A model generated the notes under the pieces. The model did not search any database. It had not been told where the DNA came from and saw nothing but the letters and a program-made list of their open reading frames with translations. Below are positions 2,028-13,569 of a stretch of DNA of 64,000 bases, one piece after another. Location of the stretch: the NCBI GenBank assembly GCA_002709295.1, contig PAQL01000012.1, positions 50,298 through 114,297 of the forward strand. Direction: 5' to 3'. Positions within the stretch are counted from its first letter, which is position 1, and every line of letters begins with the position of its first letter. A program made the translations under genes and the position numbers. The stretch comes from Phycisphaerae bacterium. Its GTDB lineage: Bacteria > Planctomycetota > Phycisphaerae > Phycisphaerales > SM1A02.

Positions 2028-4037
2028 CTAGCGGTTCTCGAGGCCCCGCTCGAGTTCCTCCCAGGTGACTCGGCGGTCGCCGTCCCGGTCGAGCCGCTCG
2101 AAGATCTCCCGGTAGCGCCTCGGACATTCCCGACGAGCGATCTCCCCGTTCCCATCCCGATCGAGCAGAGCCATGATCCGCGCCGCGGTCATGCCCCGTC
2201 CCGCCGCGAGATCCCCCTCCGTTCGACGGGGCACGAGGTACTCCACGTATCCGAGCATCATCTCCTCGTAGGTCTGGTCCCCCCACCGGACCTCCGCCTC
2301 GGGATCCGGATTGGCGGGGTTGCCGACCGAGTTGTCGAAGGTGGCGAAACCCTCGAGCAACGATCCCGCGGGAATCGACTTCGGCGTGGCCTGCACGTAG
2401 CTCAACTGCCAGTTGAAGTCGTAGTTCGGAACGTCGAGGAGCACCTCGCGTCGACCTTCGGGGTCCACCCATTCGTAGCGGTAGGAGCGACCCCGGACAT
2501 GCATGTGCGGCAGGAGGGCGAGGATGCGGATGTCCTGCGGCACGCGGATCCTTGCCTCGACGGGATGGGCATCCGCGTTGGGGGGGATGCGAAATCGACG
2601 GTTCGCGATGCTCGTCACCATGACCTCGGTCTCGGGAGGTCCTTCGGCGAATCGGAGACCGAGCCGGGTGCGATCGGAGGTCGCGCGACCGTTCGGGGTG
2701 TAGTGCAGCTGGAAGTACAGGGTCGCGCCCGCCGGGAGTCGCTTGGCCATCGTCCTTCCATCCGAGATGCCGGGATCGGAGTAGTCCATCGATCGGTGAC
2801 CGGGGACGTAGGCGGCCACGAACCCGTCGCGATCGGCCTGACCGGTCGCGGGATCACGCACGAACACGAGCACGTGGTGGACCGCATCCAGCGCCGTCGG
2901 AACGACCTCCCACGCCTCGATCCAGCGGTCCTCGGCGAAGTCCGTCTTCACGGTCAGGTTCACGTAGTCGAGATAGCCCTCCGCGGGAATCGCGACCTCC
3001 CTGGGGATCTCCAGCACCAGATCCGGTTCTCCGATCGACCATGATGCGACGGATCCGTGGCGACGGCGATCCACGACTTCCATCCGCGGACCCATCGCGG
3101 GATCGCCGGAAGGACGTGCATTCCGGGCCCAGGCGAGGATCGCAGATCGTTCATCGTCGGCCAGCGAGCGATCGTTGATCCATGGCGAAGGCCCCCCGTG
3201 GGCGGGCGGCGCCGCGAACCAGGGCGGCATGAGACCACGGTCGACCTGACGGGCGATCATCCCGGCATTCGCGACGGCTTCCGCCTCGTCGTCGAGCGGA
3301 AACGGACCGACACCTCCATCGTGATGGCAGCCGACGCAATGGGTGGCGAAGAGTCTGGAGATCGTCCCGTGCCAGGTCGGTCGCTCCTCGAGAACCGGAC
3401 GATCGACATCCAGTCCGAGCTCGCATCCCGGCGCGGTTGTCGCTGCGACCGCGATGACCGAGCCGTCGATCACCGCATCGACCGCATCGACCAGGGGAGT
3501 GATCCGAGGCTCGGCCCGCGTGTAACCGAGGCCGATCCGATCATCGACGGCGCCTCGATACCGAATCGTCCCGCGATCATCGATGAGGAAGGCCTCCGTG
3601 GTCGTGGACGCACCCAGTGCCGTCGCGATCCGGCGATCCGGGTCGTGGATCGCCTCCCCTTCGTATCCACCCTCTCGAAGCAGCCGACGAAGATCCTCCA
3701 CCCCGTCGTTCCCCTGGACGTCGACGAGAATCGTGCGGACCCCGCGGTCCGCCCAGGTCGATTCGAGCCCGGCGAGGACCGGAACCCAGCGGCGACTGAG
3801 CGGACACGACGTGCTCGTCATGACCAGGACCGTCGCGGGCGGAGCGACTGCAGGCACGAGGGCCTCACCATCGATGGTCGGGATACCGGGCAGGACCGCC
3901 CGCCGACCGACCCCGACTCGATCACCGGACAGCACCCGGGGAGCCTCGCGGACCGGAGAGGCGTCCTGCTGCGGATCCGCGGCGGCATCCAGCACCGGGA
4001 ACATCAGAGCAATCGCGATCAGCTGGATACGGAACAT
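2028..4037 (-). CDS. Redoxin - cytochrome c - copper monooxygenase-like - EF-hand fusion protein
   Basis: 669 aa. A signal peptide (about 1-20) is followed by a thioredoxin-fold redoxin domain (about 45-195) with a single active-site cysteine, C78 in TSTSCPLSRRW. A c-type heme site CVGCH lies at 234-238. A domain resembling copper type II ascorbate-dependent monooxygenases (PHM fold) follows: it keeps a His-His pair (H387-H388 in VHHVLVF), H445 in LHYTPNG, H511 and H513 in PHMHVRG, and methionines M593-M594 in EEMMLGY, matching the usual ligand pattern. Two EF-hand loops close the protein (DRDGNGEIARRE about 626-637 and DRDGDRRVTWEE about 650-661). The start is well supported by AGGAGG four bases upstream of the ATG. 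The protein is probably periplasmic. The substrate is unknown. Domain content is seen; catalytic activity is inferred. Confidence 0.85.
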   Translation of the reverse strand: MFRIQLIAIALMFPVLDAAADPQQDASPVREAPRVLSGDRVGVGRRAVLPGIPTIDGEALVPAVAPPATVLVMTSTSCPLSRRWVPVLAGLESTWADRGVRTILVDVQGNDGVEDLRRLLREGGYEGEAIHDPDRRIATALGASTTTEAFLIDDRGTIRYRGAVDDRIGLGYTRAEPRITPLVDAVDAVIDGSVIAVAATTAPGCELGLDVDRPVLEERPTWHGTISRLFATHCVGCHHDGGVGPFPLDDEAEAVANAGMIARQVDRGLMPPWFAAPPAHGGPSPWINDRSLADDERSAILAWARNARPSGDPAMGPRMEVVDRRRHGSVASWSIGEPDLVLEIPREVAIPAEGYLDYVNLTVKTDFAEDRWIEAWEVVPTALDAVHHVLVFVRDPATGQADRDGFVAAYVPGHRSMDYSDPGISDGRTMAKRLPAGATLYFQLHYTPNGRATSDRTRLGLRFAEGPPETEVMVTSIANRRFRIPPNADAHPVEARIRVPQDIRILALLPHMHVRGRSYRYEWVDPEGRREVLLDVPNYDFNWQLSYVQATPKSIPAGSLLEGFATFDNSVGNPANPDPEAEVRWGDQTYEEMMLGYVEYLVPRRTEGDLAAGRGMTAARIMALLDRDGNGEIARRECPRRYREIFERLDRDGDRRVTWEELERGLENR

Positions 4038-4076: not shown

Positions 4077-5324
4077 CTACTTGACCGAGCTCATCCGGAT
4101 CGGGGTTCGCTCGCGGGCCGAGAGGATCGCGGCCTCGAGGACCCGCTGGGTCTCGAAGGCATCCTCGAAGTCGGGCATCGTGACCTCGGGCTTCCTTCCG
4201 CCGAGCATGCGGACCGTGTCCGCCACCTGACTCACGAATCCATGCTCGTATCCCAGCCCGTGAGCGGCCGGCCAGTAGGACTCGACGTAGGGATGGGCAC
4301 CGGCCTCGGTGCACATGATGCGACTCCAGCCCCTCAGGCCGGGCTCGAGGGTGTGGTCCCACCACTCGAGCTCGTTCATCCTTTCGAAGTCGAACTTGAT
4401 CGATCCCTTCTCGCCGTTGATCTCGATGTTGTTCCGGTTGAGGTTTCCCGTGGCCATGCGGGTGGCCTCGAAGCTCGCGACCGCCCCCTGCTTGAACTTC
4501 GCGAGGAAGAGCACCGCGTCATCGACCGTGGAGCGACCGGTCTTCGCCTTGCCACCCCGTCCTCGGGAACCCTTGATCGCCGCCCCGGCATCCCCCACCA
4601 GCTCGCGACGGGTGACGAAGGTCTCCTCGACCCCGCCGATGACCTCGGCGACCTCGTCGCCGGTCAGGAAGCGGGCGAGATCGATGATGTGCGCATTCAG
4701 ATCCCCGTGAGCGCCGGAGCCGGCCTGCTTGGAGTCGAACCGCCAGACCAGCGGAGTGTCGGGGTGCCCCCAGTCCTGGAGGTAGCTGGCCCGGACATGG
4801 AAGATCCGGCCCAGCCGACCCTTCGCGATCAGCTGATGGGCGAACGCGAGGGCCGGGACCCGTCGGTAGTTGAACCAGACGAAGGTCTGCTGCCCCTTCC
4901 GCTTCGCCTTGCGGGCCGCGTCGCGCATCTCCCTCGCGTCCTCGAGCGTGCCGGCCAGGGGCTTCTCGCAGGCGACGTGCTTTCCGGCCGCGAGGGCCTC
5001 GACGGACATCGGAGCGTGAAGGTGGTTCGGAGTGCAGACATCGACGAGATCGACTTCCGGATCGGCGACGAGTTCATGCCAGTCGTCGGTGCTCGTCCTC
5101 CAGCCCCAGTTCTCCGCGAACCGGCAGGTCTCCCTGGCATCCCGCCCACTCGCGGACTGCATGACGATTCCGCGGGGGAGATCGAAGAATCTCGATGCCG
5201 AGAGCCAGGCGTTGGCGTGAGCCTTGCCCATGAACTTCGTGCCGATGATTCCAACCCTGACGGGACCGGTGGAGGCCCGCCCCGATGCTCGCTTCGACGT
5301 TCCTCGCTGTGCGGTCCTGGCCAT
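4077..5324 (-). CDS. Gfo/Idh/MocA family NAD(P)-dependent oxidoreductase
   Basis: 415 aa. After a basic N-terminal tail of about 20 residues, a Rossmann motif GIIGTKFMGKAHANAW (about 25-40) binds the nucleotide. The family signature CEKPLAG lies at 119-125, its lysine being the usual catalytic lysine. The C-terminal alpha/beta domain includes the GAHGDLNAHIIDLARF segment typical of the substrate side. Such enzymes oxidise or reduce sugars, inositols or related polyols; the substrate cannot be read from sequence. The gene is separated by 39 bases from the redoxin fusion on the same strand, so co-transcription is possible. An AGGAGAG ribosome site precedes the ATG. A lysine/glycine-rich insertion lies near residue 250. 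Confidence 0.88.
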   Translation of the reverse strand: MARTAQRGTSKRASGRASTGPVRVGIIGTKFMGKAHANAWLSASRFFDLPRGIVMQSASGRDARETCRFAENWGWRTSTDDWHELVADPEVDLVDVCTPNHLHAPMSVEALAAGKHVACEKPLAGTLEDAREMRDAARKAKRKGQQTFVWFNYRRVPALAFAHQLIAKGRLGRIFHVRASYLQDWGHPDTPLVWRFDSKQAGSGAHGDLNAHIIDLARFLTGDEVAEVIGGVEETFVTRRELVGDAGAAIKGSRGRGGKAKTGRSTVDDAVLFLAKFKQGAVASFEATRMATGNLNRNNIEINGEKGSIKFDFERMNELEWWDHTLEPGLRGWSRIMCTEAGAHPYVESYWPAAHGLGYEHGFVSQVADTVRMLGGRKPEVTMPDFEDAFETQRVLEAAILSARERTPIRMSSVK

Positions 5325-5503: not shown

Positions 5504-6943
5504 ATGACTGACAGACCTGCCGCCTCCACCCGTGATGACCTCGCCGGACGACTCGCGACCCTCGAGATGTCGCTGGATCGGGAACGAGACCGCCGCCGCA
5601 GACTCGAGAGAGTGCTGCTCGGCGGCGTCCTCTTCGCGGCCGGGTTCGGCGCCCTCGCCGCGGGAGGATTCTCCAACGTGACCGAGGTCGTCCAGACCCG
5701 CCGGCTGGAGATCATCGATGACAACGATCGGGTCGTCATGCTGGCGACCGCCGCCAGGCATGGCGGCCGACTCGACGTCTGGGACGCCGCCCAGCGCAAC
5801 ATCGCCCGCCTCACCGGGAACGGGGTCGGCGGCGATTTCTCCCTCTTCGATCGAGGCGGGCGCCCGGTCGCAGGCATGTACGCCGCAGGAACCGCCGCGA
5901 GGATCGAGGTCAGCAATCCGGAGAACGGCTCCGCCGCCGCGGTGCTCACCGCCGACGAACGAGGGGGCTTGGTGACGACCGCGGACGACCAGGGACGACG
6001 GGGCACGAGAATGTCCACCCGCAACGGTCGCGGGATGGTGGCGGTCGGCACGCCCGAGCGCGATCTGGCGATCCTGGACATGACCGACTCGACCGGTCGG
6101 ATCACCACCAGACCTCTCGACGGGGAGATCGAGACCCGCCTCGAGGATCGTGGCGTCCTGGTGATGTCTCCCTCCCACACCCTCGCCTCGCTCGGCCCCT
6201 CCGAGGACGGAGGTCGACTGGAACTGCGGGACGACAAGGGTCGGCTGCGAATGTCGGGGGTCGCGGACTCGGACGGCGGACGACTCGAGACCCTCGATGG
6301 CGACGGCACGGCGCGGGTGTCGCTGGGGCTGGGAACCGGCGGGACCGGCGTGAGGGTGAGGAACTCCGGGGGCGAGTCGATCATCGCCTTCGGCGAGGAC
6401 TCCACCGGAGGCGGAGCCTTCGAAGTCTCGGACGAGGAGGGCAACCGCTGTCTGACCATGGGGGTCGGCGAAGTCGCCGGGCGAATCGTCATCTCCACCC
6501 GTGAGGGACTTCCCGCCCTCAGTGCCGGAGGGGGTCGTGAAGGCGGCCGTTTCGATGTGAACGACAGAGAGGGAGACGTGGTGGCGACGCTGCGGGGAAT
6601 GGGTGACGGCGGCCGAATCGGCGTCGCATCCGAGACCGCCGGGGTCGGGATCTCCCTGGATGCGACGAGAAACGAGGCCCCGAGCTTCTCCATGTTCACG
6701 CCGACCGGTCGCATCGTGGCCATCGCGGCCACGACCTCCGGCGGCCTGATCAACCTCAATGACGCCACTGGTGCCGTCGCGGTGGCCGTGGGCGCCGCCA
6801 ACGACGCGCCGGGCGGAGTCGTGTCCGTGCGCAACGAGGAGGGCAAGGAGGTCCTGCGGGCCGGAGTCAGGGAAGGCGGCGAGGGGATCCTCGAGGTCTA
6901 CAACGAATCACACACCCGGAAGCGGAGCCTCGTGGCACCATGA
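5504..6943 (+). CDS. Single-pass membrane protein with tandem beta-solenoid-like repeats
   Basis: 479 aa from the ATG at 5504, which has GGAG upstream; the frame is open further 5', but that part looks like a shadow. A short charged helix (about 13-36, coiled-coil-like, ending RDRRRRLER) leads into one transmembrane segment (about 37-56), so the C-terminal bulk should lie outside the inner membrane. From about residue 63 to the end runs a degenerate repeat of about 20-28 residues, centred on GGRLxVxDxxGxxV (DGGRLELRDDKG, EGGRFDVNDREG, PGGVVSVRNEEG and others, about twelve copies). This suggests a beta-solenoid or propeller. The stop overlaps the next start (ATGA, 6940-6943), so it is translationally coupled to the MscS channel. 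I do not recognise a named family. Confidence 0.75.
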   Translation: MTDRPAASTRDDLAGRLATLEMSLDRERDRRRRLERVLLGGVLFAAGFGALAAGGFSNVTEVVQTRRLEIIDDNDRVVMLATAARHGGRLDVWDAAQRNIARLTGNGVGGDFSLFDRGGRPVAGMYAAGTAARIEVSNPENGSAAAVLTADERGGLVTTADDQGRRGTRMSTRNGRGMVAVGTPERDLAILDMTDSTGRITTRPLDGEIETRLEDRGVLVMSPSHTLASLGPSEDGGRLELRDDKGRLRMSGVADSDGGRLETLDGDGTARVSLGLGTGGTGVRVRNSGGESIIAFGEDSTGGGAFEVSDEEGNRCLTMGVGEVAGRIVISTREGLPALSAGGGREGGRFDVNDREGDVVATLRGMGDGGRIGVASETAGVGISLDATRNEAPSFSMFTPTGRIVAIAATTSGGLINLNDATGAVAVAVGAANDAPGGVVSVRNEEGKEVLRAGVREGGEGILEVYNESHTRKRSLVAP

Positions 6944-8982
6944 ATCTGAAGACACCGAATCTCCCCGCAGTCGCCCACCGATTCGTGGGTGTCCTCGCCC
7001 TCGTGATCCTCGCCGGATCCACGGGTTGGATGTCTCCGACCGCCGACGCCGTGCCACCGATCCCGCAATCGAACACCCCGCAGGCGACCGGCAACGAGAC
7101 GGAGAAGCCTGATCCGGAAGCGCGCTCCAAGGTCGAATCGCCTCGAGCCACGCTCAAGACGCTCTTCAACGCGTTCCCGAAGGACGCTCCCGACCAGATC
7201 GCCAAGTCGTTCGGATGCTTCCCCGAGGCCGCGCTGCCTCCGACCATGACGGTGAGGCAGGTGACGATCAGGGAGCTGGTGAGGATCCTCGACTGGCTGG
7301 GCTGGCGCGATCCCGCGATGATCGCTCAGGTGCCCGACTCCGTGCCGGAGGACGCCCCCGGCACCTTCACCCTCCTTCCATGGAGCGGGGGTCCCGACGA
7401 ACTGACCACCAGACGTTCCGACCAGCTGATGAAACTGGTCGGCGATTCCGGAGCCATCGAACTGCGTCGCGGGTCGAACGACGGCTGGCGATTCAACCCC
7501 GAGACCCTCTCGCCGGATCTTCTCGACGAGATGAGGGATGCGATCCGGAACATCCAGAACCAGACCGGCGAGAAACCGGACAGCATCGACGGGCTGGAGG
7601 ACTGGATCGTCTCGCAGGACATCCCCTGGCTCACCAGCAAGGTCGCCTTCATCGAGATCTGGCAGTGGTTCGGACTGGGGAGCATCATCCTCATCGGCCT
7701 GATCGTCGATCTGGTCGTCCGCCTGATCGGCTCGAGGGGCATCGGACATCTCGCACGCAGGATCCACAAGCCGACGGAGGGCATCACGATCAGGCGGGCG
7801 GTCCGGGGACTCGGACTGACCAGCTCGACCGCCACCTGGCTCCTGCTGCTTCCGATGCTCGATCTGCCGCTCGTGGCCTTCGGAGTGCTGCAGCCGGCGG
7901 CCAAGTTCGCCTTCATCCTGGCGCTGTTCTGGTGGGGATGGCGGATGACGGACCTCGCCGGCGAGATCATGGTCGGCCGGGCCAAGCTCTCTCAGACCAA
8001 GGCGGACGACATCCTCGTACCGATGGTCCGCAAGACCCTGAAGGTCCTGCTGGTCGCGTTCGTGCTGGTCAATCTCGCCCCGATGCTCGGACTGAACCTC
8101 GGGCCGCTGCTCGCCGCGATCGGCGTCGGTTCCTTCGGGTTCGCATTCGCCTTCAAGAACTCGCTCGAGAACCTCTTCGGCAGCGTGACGGTGATACTCG
8201 ACCGCCCGTTCCAGGTGGGCGACTGGATCATCGTGGACGGGATCGAGGGCACGGTCGAGACGGTCGGCATCCGCTCGACCAGGATCCGCACCTTCTACAA
8301 CTCCCTCGTCTCGCTTCCGAACTCCAACCTCGTCACCTCCAAGGTCGACAACTACGGTCTCCGGAAGTACCGACGGTGGAAGTCGACGATCGGGATCCTC
8401 TACGGAACCCCGGTGCCGAGGATCGAGGCCTTCTGCGAGGGCATTCGAGAGATCGTCAGGGAACATCCCTACACCCGGAAGGACTACTACCAGGTGTGGG
8501 TGAACGAATTCGGCCCGAGCTCCATCGACATCCTCGTCTACGTCTTCTGGGAGACTCCCGACTGGCAGACCGAGCTTCGGGAACGTCACCGCTTCATGAT
8601 CGACATCATGCGACTCGCCGGGATTCTCGGGGTGGACTTCGCATTCCCCTCCCAGACCATCTATCTCGAGCGAGGGGAGGGAAGAGCCGCCCCGAGGGAT
8701 GAGACGCTGGACGCGACGGCCGATCCCCGGATGGCGTTCCGAAAGGGGCGGAATGCGGTGCGGGAGATGACCAGGGACGAGAGCTGGCGGCAGGAGAAGC
8801 TCCACAAGTACCGGTTCCTCGACGCGGAGGAGACCATGAAGCTCGACTCCATCGACGACGTGGACCATGCCGATAGGATCGAATCACGACTGGAACGTCA
8901 TGAACGCACCGATCTCCCACCCGAAACCGGCCAGGACCCCGACAGACCCGACTTCACCGAGCAGCGGGACGCGGGCGGCTGA
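6940..8982 (+). CDS. Mechanosensitive ion channel, MscS family
   Basis: 680 aa. A signal peptide or first hydrophobic segment (about 13-35) is followed by a periplasmic region of about 200 residues and then several transmembrane helices (about 237-260, 290-345, 365-390). The MscS core is clear: the pore-lining GLNLGPLLAAIGVGSFGFAF stretch, then KNSLENLFGSV, the beta domain FQVGDWIIVDGIEGTVE and RIRTFYNSLVSLPNSNL. The C-terminal cytoplasmic domain continues to about residue 575, followed by a charged tail rich in R, E and D. MscS channels release solutes on hypo-osmotic shock. The extended N-terminus and tail make it much longer than E. coli MscS (286 aa). Coupled by a 4-base overlap to the repeat protein upstream. 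Confidence 0.93.
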   Translation: MNLKTPNLPAVAHRFVGVLALVILAGSTGWMSPTADAVPPIPQSNTPQATGNETEKPDPEARSKVESPRATLKTLFNAFPKDAPDQIAKSFGCFPEAALPPTMTVRQVTIRELVRILDWLGWRDPAMIAQVPDSVPEDAPGTFTLLPWSGGPDELTTRRSDQLMKLVGDSGAIELRRGSNDGWRFNPETLSPDLLDEMRDAIRNIQNQTGEKPDSIDGLEDWIVSQDIPWLTSKVAFIEIWQWFGLGSIILIGLIVDLVVRLIGSRGIGHLARRIHKPTEGITIRRAVRGLGLTSSTATWLLLLPMLDLPLVAFGVLQPAAKFAFILALFWWGWRMTDLAGEIMVGRAKLSQTKADDILVPMVRKTLKVLLVAFVLVNLAPMLGLNLGPLLAAIGVGSFGFAFAFKNSLENLFGSVTVILDRPFQVGDWIIVDGIEGTVETVGIRSTRIRTFYNSLVSLPNSNLVTSKVDNYGLRKYRRWKSTIGILYGTPVPRIEAFCEGIREIVREHPYTRKDYYQVWVNEFGPSSIDILVYVFWETPDWQTELRERHRFMIDIMRLAGILGVDFAFPSQTIYLERGEGRAAPRDETLDATADPRMAFRKGRNAVREMTRDESWRQEKLHKYRFLDAEETMKLDSIDDVDHADRIESRLERHERTDLPPETGQDPDRPDFTEQRDAGG

Positions 8983-9040: not shown

Positions 9041-9445
9041 TTGTCCTCGCCAATCATCGATGAAACCGCCGTCCTCGTCCTCGACTCCATGACCGATGGC
9101 CTTGGAGTCTTCACGATCCCGGGAACCCAGTATCGACTGCACCTGACGGTCTCGGAGGGGCTCGAGGACCTCGTCGGAAGCCGGGTGCGTGGGCGGGTGC
9201 GGGGCCGTTCCCTGAGGATGCACCACTCTCCCGCAGGAGGCAACTTCATAGAGCCTCTGCAAGGACGACCCAGGATCGTCCAGGGGACGGTGCTCGCCGT
9301 CGACCCGGATGCCCACGAGGTCCTGGTGGATCTCGTGATTCCGATCCGCCTCGCCATTCCCGAGGATCAGCCCACGAGCGCCTTCGCCACCGGGGACATG
9401 GTCAACTTCTACATGGAGCCCGGCGCGAGTTTCCATCGCGACTGA
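9041..9445 (+). CDS. Small conserved-type protein of unknown function
   Basis: 134 aa starting at TTG, with GGAG ten bases upstream. No signal peptide or membrane segment. The sequence is beta-rich, with alternating hydrophobic residues and a basic VGSRVRGRVRGRSLRMHH stretch (about 47-64), giving an OB-fold or small-barrel impression. I do not recognise a family. It lies between mscS and the amidotransferase gene on the same strand with short gaps (58 and 30 bases), so it may be part of a loose operon. Confidence 0.6.
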   Translation: MSSPIIDETAVLVLDSMTDGLGVFTIPGTQYRLHLTVSEGLEDLVGSRVRGRVRGRSLRMHHSPAGGNFIEPLQGRPRIVQGTVLAVDPDAHEVLVDLVIPIRLAIPEDQPTSAFATGDMVNFYMEPGASFHRD

Positions 9446-9475: not shown

Positions 9476-10054
9476 ATGCTGCTGCTCATCGACAATTACG
9501 ACTCCTTCACGTGGAACCTCGTGCAACGCTTCGGCGAGATCGATCCCGATCTGGAGATCCGCGTGGTGCGCAACGACGCGATCGATCCCGACGAGGCGGA
9601 GGAGATGAACCCATCGCGACTCGTCGTGTCACCGGGCCCCTGCACTCCCCGCGAGGCCGGGGTCAGCGCCGCGATGATCGAGCGGTTTCGTGGTCGCATA
9701 CCGATCCTCGGCGTCTGCCTGGGTCATCAGACGATCGGCGATCTGCACGGGATGACCGTGCGTCGTCATGATGTGCCGGTGCATGGGAAGACCTCGATGG
9801 TTCATCACGACGGACGCGGCGTCTTCCGAGGTCTGCCGAATCCGTTTCAGGCGACCCGGTACCACTCGCTGGTCGTGGAGAGGAGCACCATCCCCGCGGG
9901 ATGGGAGATCTCCGCATGGCTTGAGGACGGACTCGTCATGGGTCTGCGCAGCGAGGGCGGCGGCCCGGGAATCGAGGGCGTGCAGTTCCACCCGGAGAGC
10001 TTCCTGACCGTCGACGGGCCCCGGCTGCTCGCGAACTTCCTGTCCGACGACTAG
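9476..10054 (+). CDS. pabA: Class I glutamine amidotransferase, anthranilate/aminodeoxychorismate synthase component II
   Basis: 192 aa, the normal length for TrpG/PabA. It hydrolyses glutamine and passes ammonia to the chorismate-binding component I, for tryptophan or folate synthesis. N-terminal LLLIDNYDSFTWNL, the oxyanion motif VVSPGPCTP, the nucleophile C81 in GVCLGHQ, and the H172/E174 pair in FHPES are all present. No trpE or pabB is adjacent, so the partner is elsewhere and trpG versus pabA cannot be decided; many bacteria share one subunit. The final four bases overlap the end of the convergent DUF1444 gene. Confidence 0.9.
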   Translation: MLLLIDNYDSFTWNLVQRFGEIDPDLEIRVVRNDAIDPDEAEEMNPSRLVVSPGPCTPREAGVSAAMIERFRGRIPILGVCLGHQTIGDLHGMTVRRHDVPVHGKTSMVHHDGRGVFRGLPNPFQATRYHSLVVERSTIPAGWEISAWLEDGLVMGLRSEGGGPGIEGVQFHPESFLTVDGPRLLANFLSDD

Positions 10055-11995: not shown

Positions 11996-12508
11996 GTGAA
12001 GTCTCTCATGAACCCCAAATGCGACAGATGCGACCGGCCGGCCGAAGTGCACGAGATCGACGTCAAGAAAGGCGTCCAGATCCACCTCTGCCGTGAATGC
12101 GCCATCGAGGCGGGATTCCAGCTACCCGACTCGCCGCCGGTCACCAAGGTCCTCTCCGATCTGGCGAGCATGCAGGTCCAGATCGCGACCGGAAGCGGTC
12201 AACGAGCCAGTTCCTGCTCCAGCTGCGGCACCACCTTCGGGCGTTTCAGGAAGACGGGCCTCCTCGGCTGTCCACAGTGCTACGAGACGTTCGCGAAGCA
12301 GCTCGAGCCGGTGATCGCCCGATCCCAGAACGGTGCCGGCACGCACGTGGGTCGCCGGCCCGACCGGGATGCCGATCGCGCGGATCACCAGGCGCTGCGA
12401 CGTTCCATCCTCGACGAGATCGAACGTGCGGTGGCGAGCGAGCAGTACGAGCGGGCGGCGAAACTCCGGGACCGCCTCCAGTCCATCGCCGAGGGGCCGG
12501 CCTCATGA
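11996..12508 (+). CDS. mcsA: McsA-like protein, UvrB/UvrC-motif zinc protein, partner of arginine kinase
   Basis: 170 aa from GTG 11996; an in-frame ATG at 12008 is an equal alternative and neither has a strong ribosome site. Two zinc-ribbon-like CxxC pairs occur in the N-terminal half (C9/C12 with C32/C35, then C74/C77 with C92/C95). The C-terminal segment (about 130-165, LDEIERAVASEQYERAAKLRD) is a UVR motif. This is the McsA layout. In Firmicutes McsA activates the protein-arginine kinase McsB and works with ClpC/CtsR; neither clpC nor ctsR is in the window. The stop overlaps the mcsB start by ATGA, supporting a coupled pair. Confidence 0.88.
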   Translation: MKSLMNPKCDRCDRPAEVHEIDVKKGVQIHLCRECAIEAGFQLPDSPPVTKVLSDLASMQVQIATGSGQRASSCSSCGTTFGRFRKTGLLGCPQCYETFAKQLEPVIARSQNGAGTHVGRRPDRDADRADHQALRRSILDEIERAVASEQYERAAKLRDRLQSIAEGPAS

Positions 12509-13569
12509 AACTCGAGCGGGGAGGCCCGTGGATCGAGACCGGAGGACCGGAAGGTGACGTCGTGGTCTCCAGCCGGGCACGGCTCGCGCGGAACCTCGTC
12601 GGCTTCCCCTTCGTGAACCAGGCGAGCGGCGATCAGTGCCGCGAGATCCTCCGTCTCGTGCGAACGCTTGATCTTTCGGACCACTCCATGCAGTGGCTCG
12701 ACGTCATGGATCTCGACGATGCCGATCGACAGCTCCTCGTGGAACGCCATCTCGTCTCGAGAAACTTCATCGATGCCGACACGCCCAGAGGCCTGTTCAT
12801 CGGTGACGGTGAACGACTCAGCATGATGGTGAACGAGGAGGACCACCTGCGAATGCAGGTCCTCCTTCCCGGATGCGAACTCCGGGAGGCGTGGCGACGC
12901 GCCTCGGACATAGACCGGAAGCTCGAGCAGAACGTCGAACTCGCCGTTCATCCTCGATGGGGCTACGTCACCGCCTGCCCGACGAATGTCGGGACCGCCA
13001 TCCGGTTCTCGGTGATGACTCACCTTCCGGCCCTGCGAATGACCAACGAGATCGAACGTCTCCGGCGGGCCGCCAACGCGCTCGATCTCGCGGTCCGCGG
13101 CTTCTACGGCGAGGGGTCCGAGAGCACCGGCGACTTCTACCAGGTCAGCAACCAGATCACCCTCGGCGTCTCGGATGCCGATCTGCTGGAGCGCTTCATA
13201 GAAACCATCGTGCCGAGGATCGTCGAATACGAACGAATGGCCAGACGCATGATGCTCGATCGGAGCCGCATGCAGCTCGAGGATCGAGTCCACCGCTCCC
13301 TCGGCCTGCTCCGGTCGGCGAGACTCCTCGGGGTCGAGGAGGCCATGAAGCATCTCAGTCGAATCAGACTCGGCGTCTCCATGGGACTGCTCGAGGAACT
13401 GAAGCTGAGCACGGTGCAGCGACTCTTCCTCGACGTGCAGCCTGGACATCTTCGGATGAACAATCCCGACCTGTCGAGCCCATCGACCATGGTGAATCCG
13501 GGTCAGACCGGCGAGGAGGAGATCCGTCTCCGCCGGGCCGAGATCGTCCGGAACGCCCTGTCGTCCTGA
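12505..13569 (+). CDS. mcsB: Protein arginine kinase McsB
   Basis: 354 aa, the usual length. Phosphagen-kinase fold: SSRARLARN (22-30) for ATP phosphate binding, NEEDHLRMQ (110-118) and CPTNVGTAIRFSV (158-170), with C158 at the phosphagen-kinase active-site cysteine position. It phosphorylates arginine side chains in proteins, in Bacillus as a degradation tag for ClpCP. The start is the ATG of the ATGA overlap with mcsA; the open frame extends further upstream but only as shadow within mcsA. Probably co-transcribed with mcsA. Confidence 0.92.
   Translation: MKLERGGPWIETGGPEGDVVVSSRARLARNLVGFPFVNQASGDQCREILRLVRTLDLSDHSMQWLDVMDLDDADRQLLVERHLVSRNFIDADTPRGLFIGDGERLSMMVNEEDHLRMQVLLPGCELREAWRRASDIDRKLEQNVELAVHPRWGYVTACPTNVGTAIRFSVMTHLPALRMTNEIERLRRAANALDLAVRGFYGEGSESTGDFYQVSNQITLGVSDADLLERFIETIVPRIVEYERMARRMMLDRSRMQLEDRVHRSLGLLRSARLLGVEEAMKHLSRIRLGVSMGLLEELKLSTVQRLFLDVQPGHLRMNNPDLSSPSTMVNPGQTGEEEIRLRRAEIVRNALSS

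What the first reader, a model, noticed from the sequence alone, without database searches (positions are those of the whole stretch)
5504..8982. Repeat-solenoid protein translationally coupled to an MscS channel
The first gene encodes one transmembrane helix followed by about twelve GGRLxVxDxxG-type repeats on the far side of the membrane. It overlaps the MscS gene by ATGA, implying balanced expression. A rigid solenoid tethered beside a mechanosensitive channel could sense or transmit envelope strain, an arrangement I do not recognise from described MscS systems.
Basis: partly seen in the sequence, partly recalled or inferred. Interest (0 to 1): 0.5.

Follow-up and report, generated by a model that had tools for sequence, protein, structure and literature searches.

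The report
Membrane-anchored beta-repeat protein beside mscS
An undescribed membrane-tethered beta-repeat protein of planctomycete bacteria shares an overlapping gene pair with a pressure-release channel in one branch of its family; in the rest of the relatives examined the two genes lie apart, so they do not look like an obligate sensor pair.

Summary
RepP (5504-6943, 479 aa) has one N-terminal membrane helix and about 17-18 repeats of 22 residues (11 with a clear GG motif). It overlaps an MscS-family channel gene (6940-8982) by ATGA. AlphaFold2 gives a ribbon of antiparallel beta-hairpins (mean pLDDT 82, pTM 0.48), resembling OspA's single-layer sheet, not a classical solenoid. A conserved heptad pattern before the helix suggests oligomers.

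A dedicated RepP-MscS strain device is not supported. RepP matches occur in 82 of 101 family genomes. Of 91 stretches examined, mscS follows RepP in 10; 70 show at least 1 kb downstream without mscS, 33 of these with the same divergent neighbour gene. MscS relatives elsewhere have no RepP nearby (25 loci). Presence of the two genes is not associated.

A tree puts the pairing on one branch, support 100/99. There the ATGA overlap is kept in 9 of 10 genomes, so translational coupling looks real. Best reading: RepP is an older exported envelope rod of its own; mscS was moved behind it once and became co-translated. Physical contact is untested.

The parts
5504..6943 (+). RepP: 479-aa single-helix, beta-repeat protein
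   Evidence: translation; no Pfam or NCBIfam family at E<=1; 82 of 101 family genomes have a match
5528..5611 (+). RepP residues 9-36: N-terminal segment with a conserved heptad (hydrophobic positions 13, 17, 20, 24) and an arginine-rich end
   Evidence: hydrophobic in 96-100% of 27 members at these four positions; helix in model
5612..5668 (+). RepP residues 37-55: predicted signal-anchor helix
   Evidence: hydropathy
5702..6940 (+). RepP residues 67-479: about 17-18 beta-hairpin repeats of 22 residues
   Evidence: lag-22 self-similarity, 0 of 1000 shuffles; AlphaFold2 strands
6940..6943 (+). ATGA stop/start overlap
   Evidence: present in 9 of 10 paired genomes
6940..8982 (+). MscS-family channel, 680 aa
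   Evidence: PF00924 E 2.8e-22 and PF21082 E 1.2e-8, both above the curated cut-off; solved relatives YnaI and MscS
7135..7614 (+). N-terminal pre-channel region of MscS (about residues 66-225), also aligned in relatives that are not paired with RepP
   Evidence: in 17 of the 25 unpaired relatives held as L076-L100 the match begins at residue 13-66; in the other 8 it begins at 167-231
4077..5324 (-). GFO/IDH/MocA oxidoreductase, divergent neighbour that marks the orthologous site
9476..10054 (+). class-I glutamine amidotransferase (trpG/pabA type), which directly follows RepP in some other genera

Best explanation
RepP is an exported, membrane-anchored beta-repeat rod of the cell envelope that works independently of MscS across the family. 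Its N-terminal heptad segment probably bundles several copies; one helix anchors them; the 22-residue hairpins build an antiparallel ribbon with one apolar face. I infer a homo-oligomeric rod, perhaps a trimeric prism like phage fibres, about 18 nm long if fully extended (38 strands at a recalled 0.48 nm each), acting as an envelope spacer or scaffold. In the ancestor of one branch (two genera among the sampled genomes), mscS was moved directly behind repP and became translationally coupled, which ties the channel's amount to that of RepP. Shown: the repeats, pairing confined to one branch, the kept ATGA. Inferred: relocation rather than another history, oligomer, rod, envelope role, co-regulation.
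For: RepP in 82 of 101 family genomes. Of 91 stretches examined, 10 have mscS next, 70 have at least 1 kb downstream without mscS, 8 have RepP cut by a contig end, 2 have under 1 kb downstream, 1 had no RepP match by tblastn. In 33 of the 70 the divergent oxidoreductase is at the same place, often with the 9041-type, trpG-type, DUF1444 and DAHP-synthetase-type genes near. Pairing needs one change on the tree, support 100/99, 0 of 500 shuffles as low. ATGA in 9 of 10 paired genomes although the CCA proline codon it needs is 5.6% of proline codons in ten window ORFs. No RepP match in the flanks (up to 1.5 kb) of 25 MscS relatives. Presence of the two genes is not associated (Fisher p 0.13 and 0.60). 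Heptad; model; apolar positions 3, 5, 7 and 14, 16 of the repeat.
Against: The keeping of ATGA across the branch may point to more than shared regulation. The oligomer, the rod and the envelope role rest on sequence pattern and a monomer model with pTM 0.48. In L121, L122, L125, L138 and L142 a long unconserved run separates the ATGA start from the signal-peptide-like core, and later in-frame starts exist (for instance ATG 9 bases after the stop in L121, 39 in L122, 57 in L125), so ATGA may not be the true start there. The closest relative by RepP identity, L123, lacks the overlap. The genomes are related, so the nine cases are not independent; CCA is commoner (7-21%) in the pairs of seven relatives.
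Confidence: 0.6

Rival explanations
1. In this branch RepP and MscS form a physical complex in which the RepP rod links the channel to another envelope layer and modulates gating by strain.
For: Overlap present in 9 of 10 paired genomes; both are membrane proteins with presumably exported parts by hydropathy.
Against: RepP is found without mscS in 70 stretches. 17 of 25 unpaired MscS relatives align over the pre-channel region too, so no pair-specific MscS domain is seen. 16 RepP-positive genomes have no MscS match at E<=1e-20, one of them (G067) because its mscS is cut by a contig end (my count).
Confidence: 0.15
2. The gene order is a chance rearrangement: mscS landed behind repP, the overlap is a by-product of compact spacing, and there is no functional link.
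For: The downstream neighbour of RepP varies: of the 72 stretches with RepP's stop seen and no mscS next, the trpG-type gene lies within 150 bp on the same strand in 10, the 9041-type gene within 150 bp on the same strand in 4 and on the opposite strand in 6. The closest relative has no overlap.
Against: ATGA persists in genomes whose RepP is only 42-43% identical to that of the window, with the needed CCA codon rare in the window.
Confidence: 0.22
3. The N-terminal helix is a cleaved signal peptide and RepP is a soluble or surface protein.
For: The helix ends near a nearly invariant Ala (A53), as in a signal-peptidase site (recalled).
Against: A charged segment with a heptad pattern before the helix is conserved, unusual for a cleaved signal (recalled).
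Confidence: 0.15

Closest known systems
MscS-family channels (E. coli MscS, YnaI)
   Same: Beta domain and C-terminal domain above Pfam cut-offs; YnaI versions are the best solved relatives, E about 1e-35.
   Different: Signal-peptide-like start and an N-terminal pre-channel region; genomic place behind repP in one branch only among the genomes examined.
OspA single-layer beta-sheet (Borrelia) and its engineered repeat versions
   Same: Antiparallel hairpins in one layer; the ten best rows have Z 13.1-13.8 over 231-275 residues; family profile matches engineered OspA 3eex at E 1.6e-8.
   Different: rmsd 9.4-11.4 A in those rows, so only the local arrangement agrees, and mainly the C-terminal two thirds of RepP is covered; RepP has one apolar face and a membrane helix; common ancestry not claimed.
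MORN-repeat proteins
   Same: Hairpin repeats of similar length (recalled); many Foldseek matches among viral models are named MORN proteins.
   Different: No Pfam match of P0001 at E<=1; MORN not among the 25 of 33 families printed for 27 members.
Trimeric phage fibres
   Same: Single-layer antiparallel strands per chain in a trimer (recalled); a few tail-fibre models among the weaker matches.
   Different: No PHROG match of P0001, and only two unnamed weak ones, one member each, among 24 members; trimer not tested.

Membership tests
MscS-family mechanosensitive channel (6940-8982) | MS_channel beta domain above curated cut-off | tested here: met
   PF00924 79 bits against cut-off 20.2
MscS-family mechanosensitive channel (6940-8982) | C-terminal MscS domain above curated cut-off | tested here: met
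   PF21082 35.7 bits against 21
MscS-family mechanosensitive channel (6940-8982) | Pore helices TM2/TM3 profile | tested here: inconclusive
   PF21088 E 0.0024, 18.3 bits, below cut-off 23.1; solved MscS chains align from residue 318-324 to about 579
MscS-family mechanosensitive channel (6940-8982) | Tension-gated conductance | not testable with these tools
   needs electrophysiology
Dedicated RepP-MscS partner system | Genes regularly adjacent across orthologues | tested here: not met
   10 adjacent, 70 not with at least 1 kb seen, of 91 stretches
Dedicated RepP-MscS partner system | Correlated presence across genomes | tested here: not met
   Fisher p 0.13 (MscS at E<=1e-20) and 0.60 (E<=1e-80) over 101 genomes (cells counted by me)
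Dedicated RepP-MscS partner system | Physical contact | not testable with these tools
   no co-folding available
OspA-like single-layer sheet (fold) | Antiparallel single-layer hairpin sheet | tested here: inconclusive
   model pLDDT 82, pTM 0.48; Z up to 13.8 but rmsd 9-11 A
MORN repeats | Match to the MORN profile of Pfam | tested here: not met
   no Pfam family at E<=1 for P0001
Trimeric fibre or beta-prism | Homotrimer | not testable with these tools
   monomer prediction only

The most novel reading that the evidence does not exclude
RepP founds a new family of membrane-anchored, oligomeric periplasmic beta-prism rods in Planctomycetota, and in one branch this rod was recruited, by a single relocation of mscS, as a co-translated mechanical partner of the channel.
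Probability: 0.1. Interest if true: 0.65.

Novelty: new variant of a known kind. Interest (0 to 1): 0.33.

Why it matters
It exposes an uncharacterised envelope-type protein, present in 82 of 101 sampled genomes of its family, for which the window's member has no Pfam or NCBIfam match. It also offers a natural experiment: a channel gene placed once into a new translational context and kept there. Comparing paired and unpaired relatives would show whether gene overlap reflects partnership or only shared dosage. The result also corrects an attractive but over-read operon inference.

Tried and rejected
Rejected: RepP as an obligate MscS subunit. Rejected: a classical parallel solenoid. Rejected: filing RepP as an OspA or MORN protein. 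Weak Pfam matches among the 27 members of A1 were scattered over 33 families (25 printed), each in at most 4 members, best E 2.8e-5 in one member; I treat them as chance. Led nowhere: single-sequence search of genome contigs (113 candidates, none confirmed); PDB sequence search with P0001 alone (best E 0.5); clusters of ORFs beside MscS relatives gave no partner that I could interpret. In print: five searches listed no paper on a repeat protein beside mscS in planctomycetes, as far as titles and abstract starts show; of PMC6461901 I saw passages, one sentence of which infers large- and small-conductance mechanosensitive channels in lacustrine Planctomycetes. Trimeric fibres are absent from the VIA-align rows shown. 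In one search the script put the stop of L052 too early (inside the hit); no mscS lies near there either way. One of the ten ORFs used for proline codons (12097-13569) begins upstream of its gene, so part of it is read out of frame. Not done: one of two structure jobs and one of three Foldseek jobs stayed unused; the neighbourhoods of G018 and G076 (2 of 82 RepP-positive genomes) were not fetched.

Full report
What is there. RepP runs from 5504 to 6943 and the channel gene from 6940 to 8982, overlapping by ATGA. RepP has one hydrophobic helix (residues 37-55) after an arginine-rich segment with hydrophobic residues at positions 13, 17, 20 and 24 in 96-100% of 27 relatives, a coiled-coil pattern. 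The rest repeats with period 22: the lag-22 similarity was reached by 0 of 1000 shuffles. Eleven units show the GG motif clearly; the model has about 17-18 hairpins and 38 strands by my count. RepP matches no Pfam or NCBIfam family at E<=1 and has one match, itself, in its own genome at E<=0.001. In 31 relatives whose starts I chose by hand, lengths run from 260 to 529 residues (one of these, L038, was then re-started a few codons on for alignment A1).

Fold. AlphaFold2 from 24 sequences gives mean pLDDT 82 and pTM 0.48: a long antiparallel hairpin ribbon whose overall shape is uncertain. Foldseek finds Rhs/teneurin repeat shells, OspA mutants and viral MORN proteins; the best VIA-align rows are OspA versions, the first ten at Z 13.1-13.8 and rmsd 9.4-11.4 A. 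The tool warns that for repeats Z under about 13 may mean only a common arrangement, so these rows are little above that. Independently, the family profile matches engineered OspA by sequence, best E 1.6e-8. Averaged over 17 units, repeat positions 3, 5 and 14, 16 (and weakly 2 and 7) are apolar while most of their neighbours are not, so one face is probably buried, by rolling up or by oligomerising. That last step is inference.

The channel. Two MscS domains pass curated cut-offs, the pore-helix profile does not, and YnaI and MscS are solved relatives. It starts with a signal-peptide-like stretch and has a pre-channel region.

Conservation of RepP. In the genome's family, 82 of 101 genomes have a match. 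In a phylum-wide draw of 246 genomes with profile A1, 41 (the window's own included) had a match at E<=1e-5, many partial and likely only repeat-level. Of the 11 other genomes printed there as same order, 2 matched, weakly; of the 5 printed as same class, none. For 19 loci of those wider matches, with flanks up to 1.5 kb, no MscS match was found.

Is mscS its partner? I examined 91 stretches: 80 from family genomes (one genome, G084, in two pieces), 10 further named records, and the window; 17 of the 27 named records were copies of the former and were dropped. mscS follows in 10; 70 have at least 1 kb downstream and none; 8 have RepP cut by a contig end; 2 show under 1 kb; 1 had no RepP match by tblastn. 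By my count, 33 of the 70 share the divergent oxidoreductase gene, so they are positional orthologues; among the other 37 some are weak matches and may be looser relatives. Of the 72 stretches with the stop seen and no mscS next, 10 have the trpG-type gene within 150 bp on the same strand. MscS relatives in other genera lie elsewhere, and 25 such loci, with flanks of up to 1.5 kb, hold no RepP match. Across 101 genomes the table (both / RepP only / MscS only / neither) is 66/16/12/7 with MscS at E<=1e-20, p 0.13, and 28/54/8/11 at E<=1e-80, p 0.60 (cells counted by me; three MscS-negative genomes not printed there were inferred by elimination). One of the 16, G067, has its mscS cut by a contig end.

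Origin of the pair. A tree of the neighbouring oxidoreductase (45 rows: 8 paired, 35 not, 2 of unknown state and not counted; L036 and L125 gave no usable row) needs one change for pairing, support 100/99, 0 of 500 shuffles as low. Among sampled family genomes the paired ones fall in two genera (g1, g34); the third g1 genome, G038, is cut inside RepP. Each of G000, G033, G062, G084 and G099 has one MscS match at E<=1e-20, which fits relocation better than duplication; that is inference.

The overlap. ATGA is present in 9 of 10 paired genomes; the exception, L123 (the same record as L031/G067), is the nearest by RepP identity (49%) and has no ATGA. The CCA codon that the overlap needs makes up 5.6% of proline codons in ten window ORFs and 7-21% in the RepP-MscS pairs of seven relatives. 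The genomes are related, so these are not nine independent cases. In some, a later in-frame start is possible.

Judgement. The proposed strain sensor as a conserved pair is not: RepP stands without mscS in most relatives examined. What remains is an uncharacterised envelope-type repeat family and one lineage in which mscS became coupled to it. I hold shared dosage or regulation as most likely, and a physical complex as possible but unsupported.

Noticed in passing
window 9041-9445: A 134-aa protein without a Pfam match at E<=1 recurs near RepP and the trpG-type gene in many syntenic relatives, with its orientation differing between them.
   Followed up: partly
window 2028-4037: Minus-strand protein with a redoxin-like part, weak cytochrome and copper monooxygenase matches and a C-terminal EF-hand; matches to its redoxin-like part also lie near RepP-like repeats in L114 and L116.
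   Followed up: no
window 11996-13569: A small Cys-pair (zinc-finger-like) protein (11996-12508) is followed by an ATP:guanido phosphotransferase domain protein; the order recalls the McsA-McsB protein-arginine kinase pair (recalled, not tested).
   Followed up: no
L102, L103, L104 (G313, G290, G263): Matches to the N-terminal part of the RepP profile in open frames of 157-226 aa in another planctomycete family (L104 has one stop inside); possibly minimal members of the RepP family.
   Followed up: no
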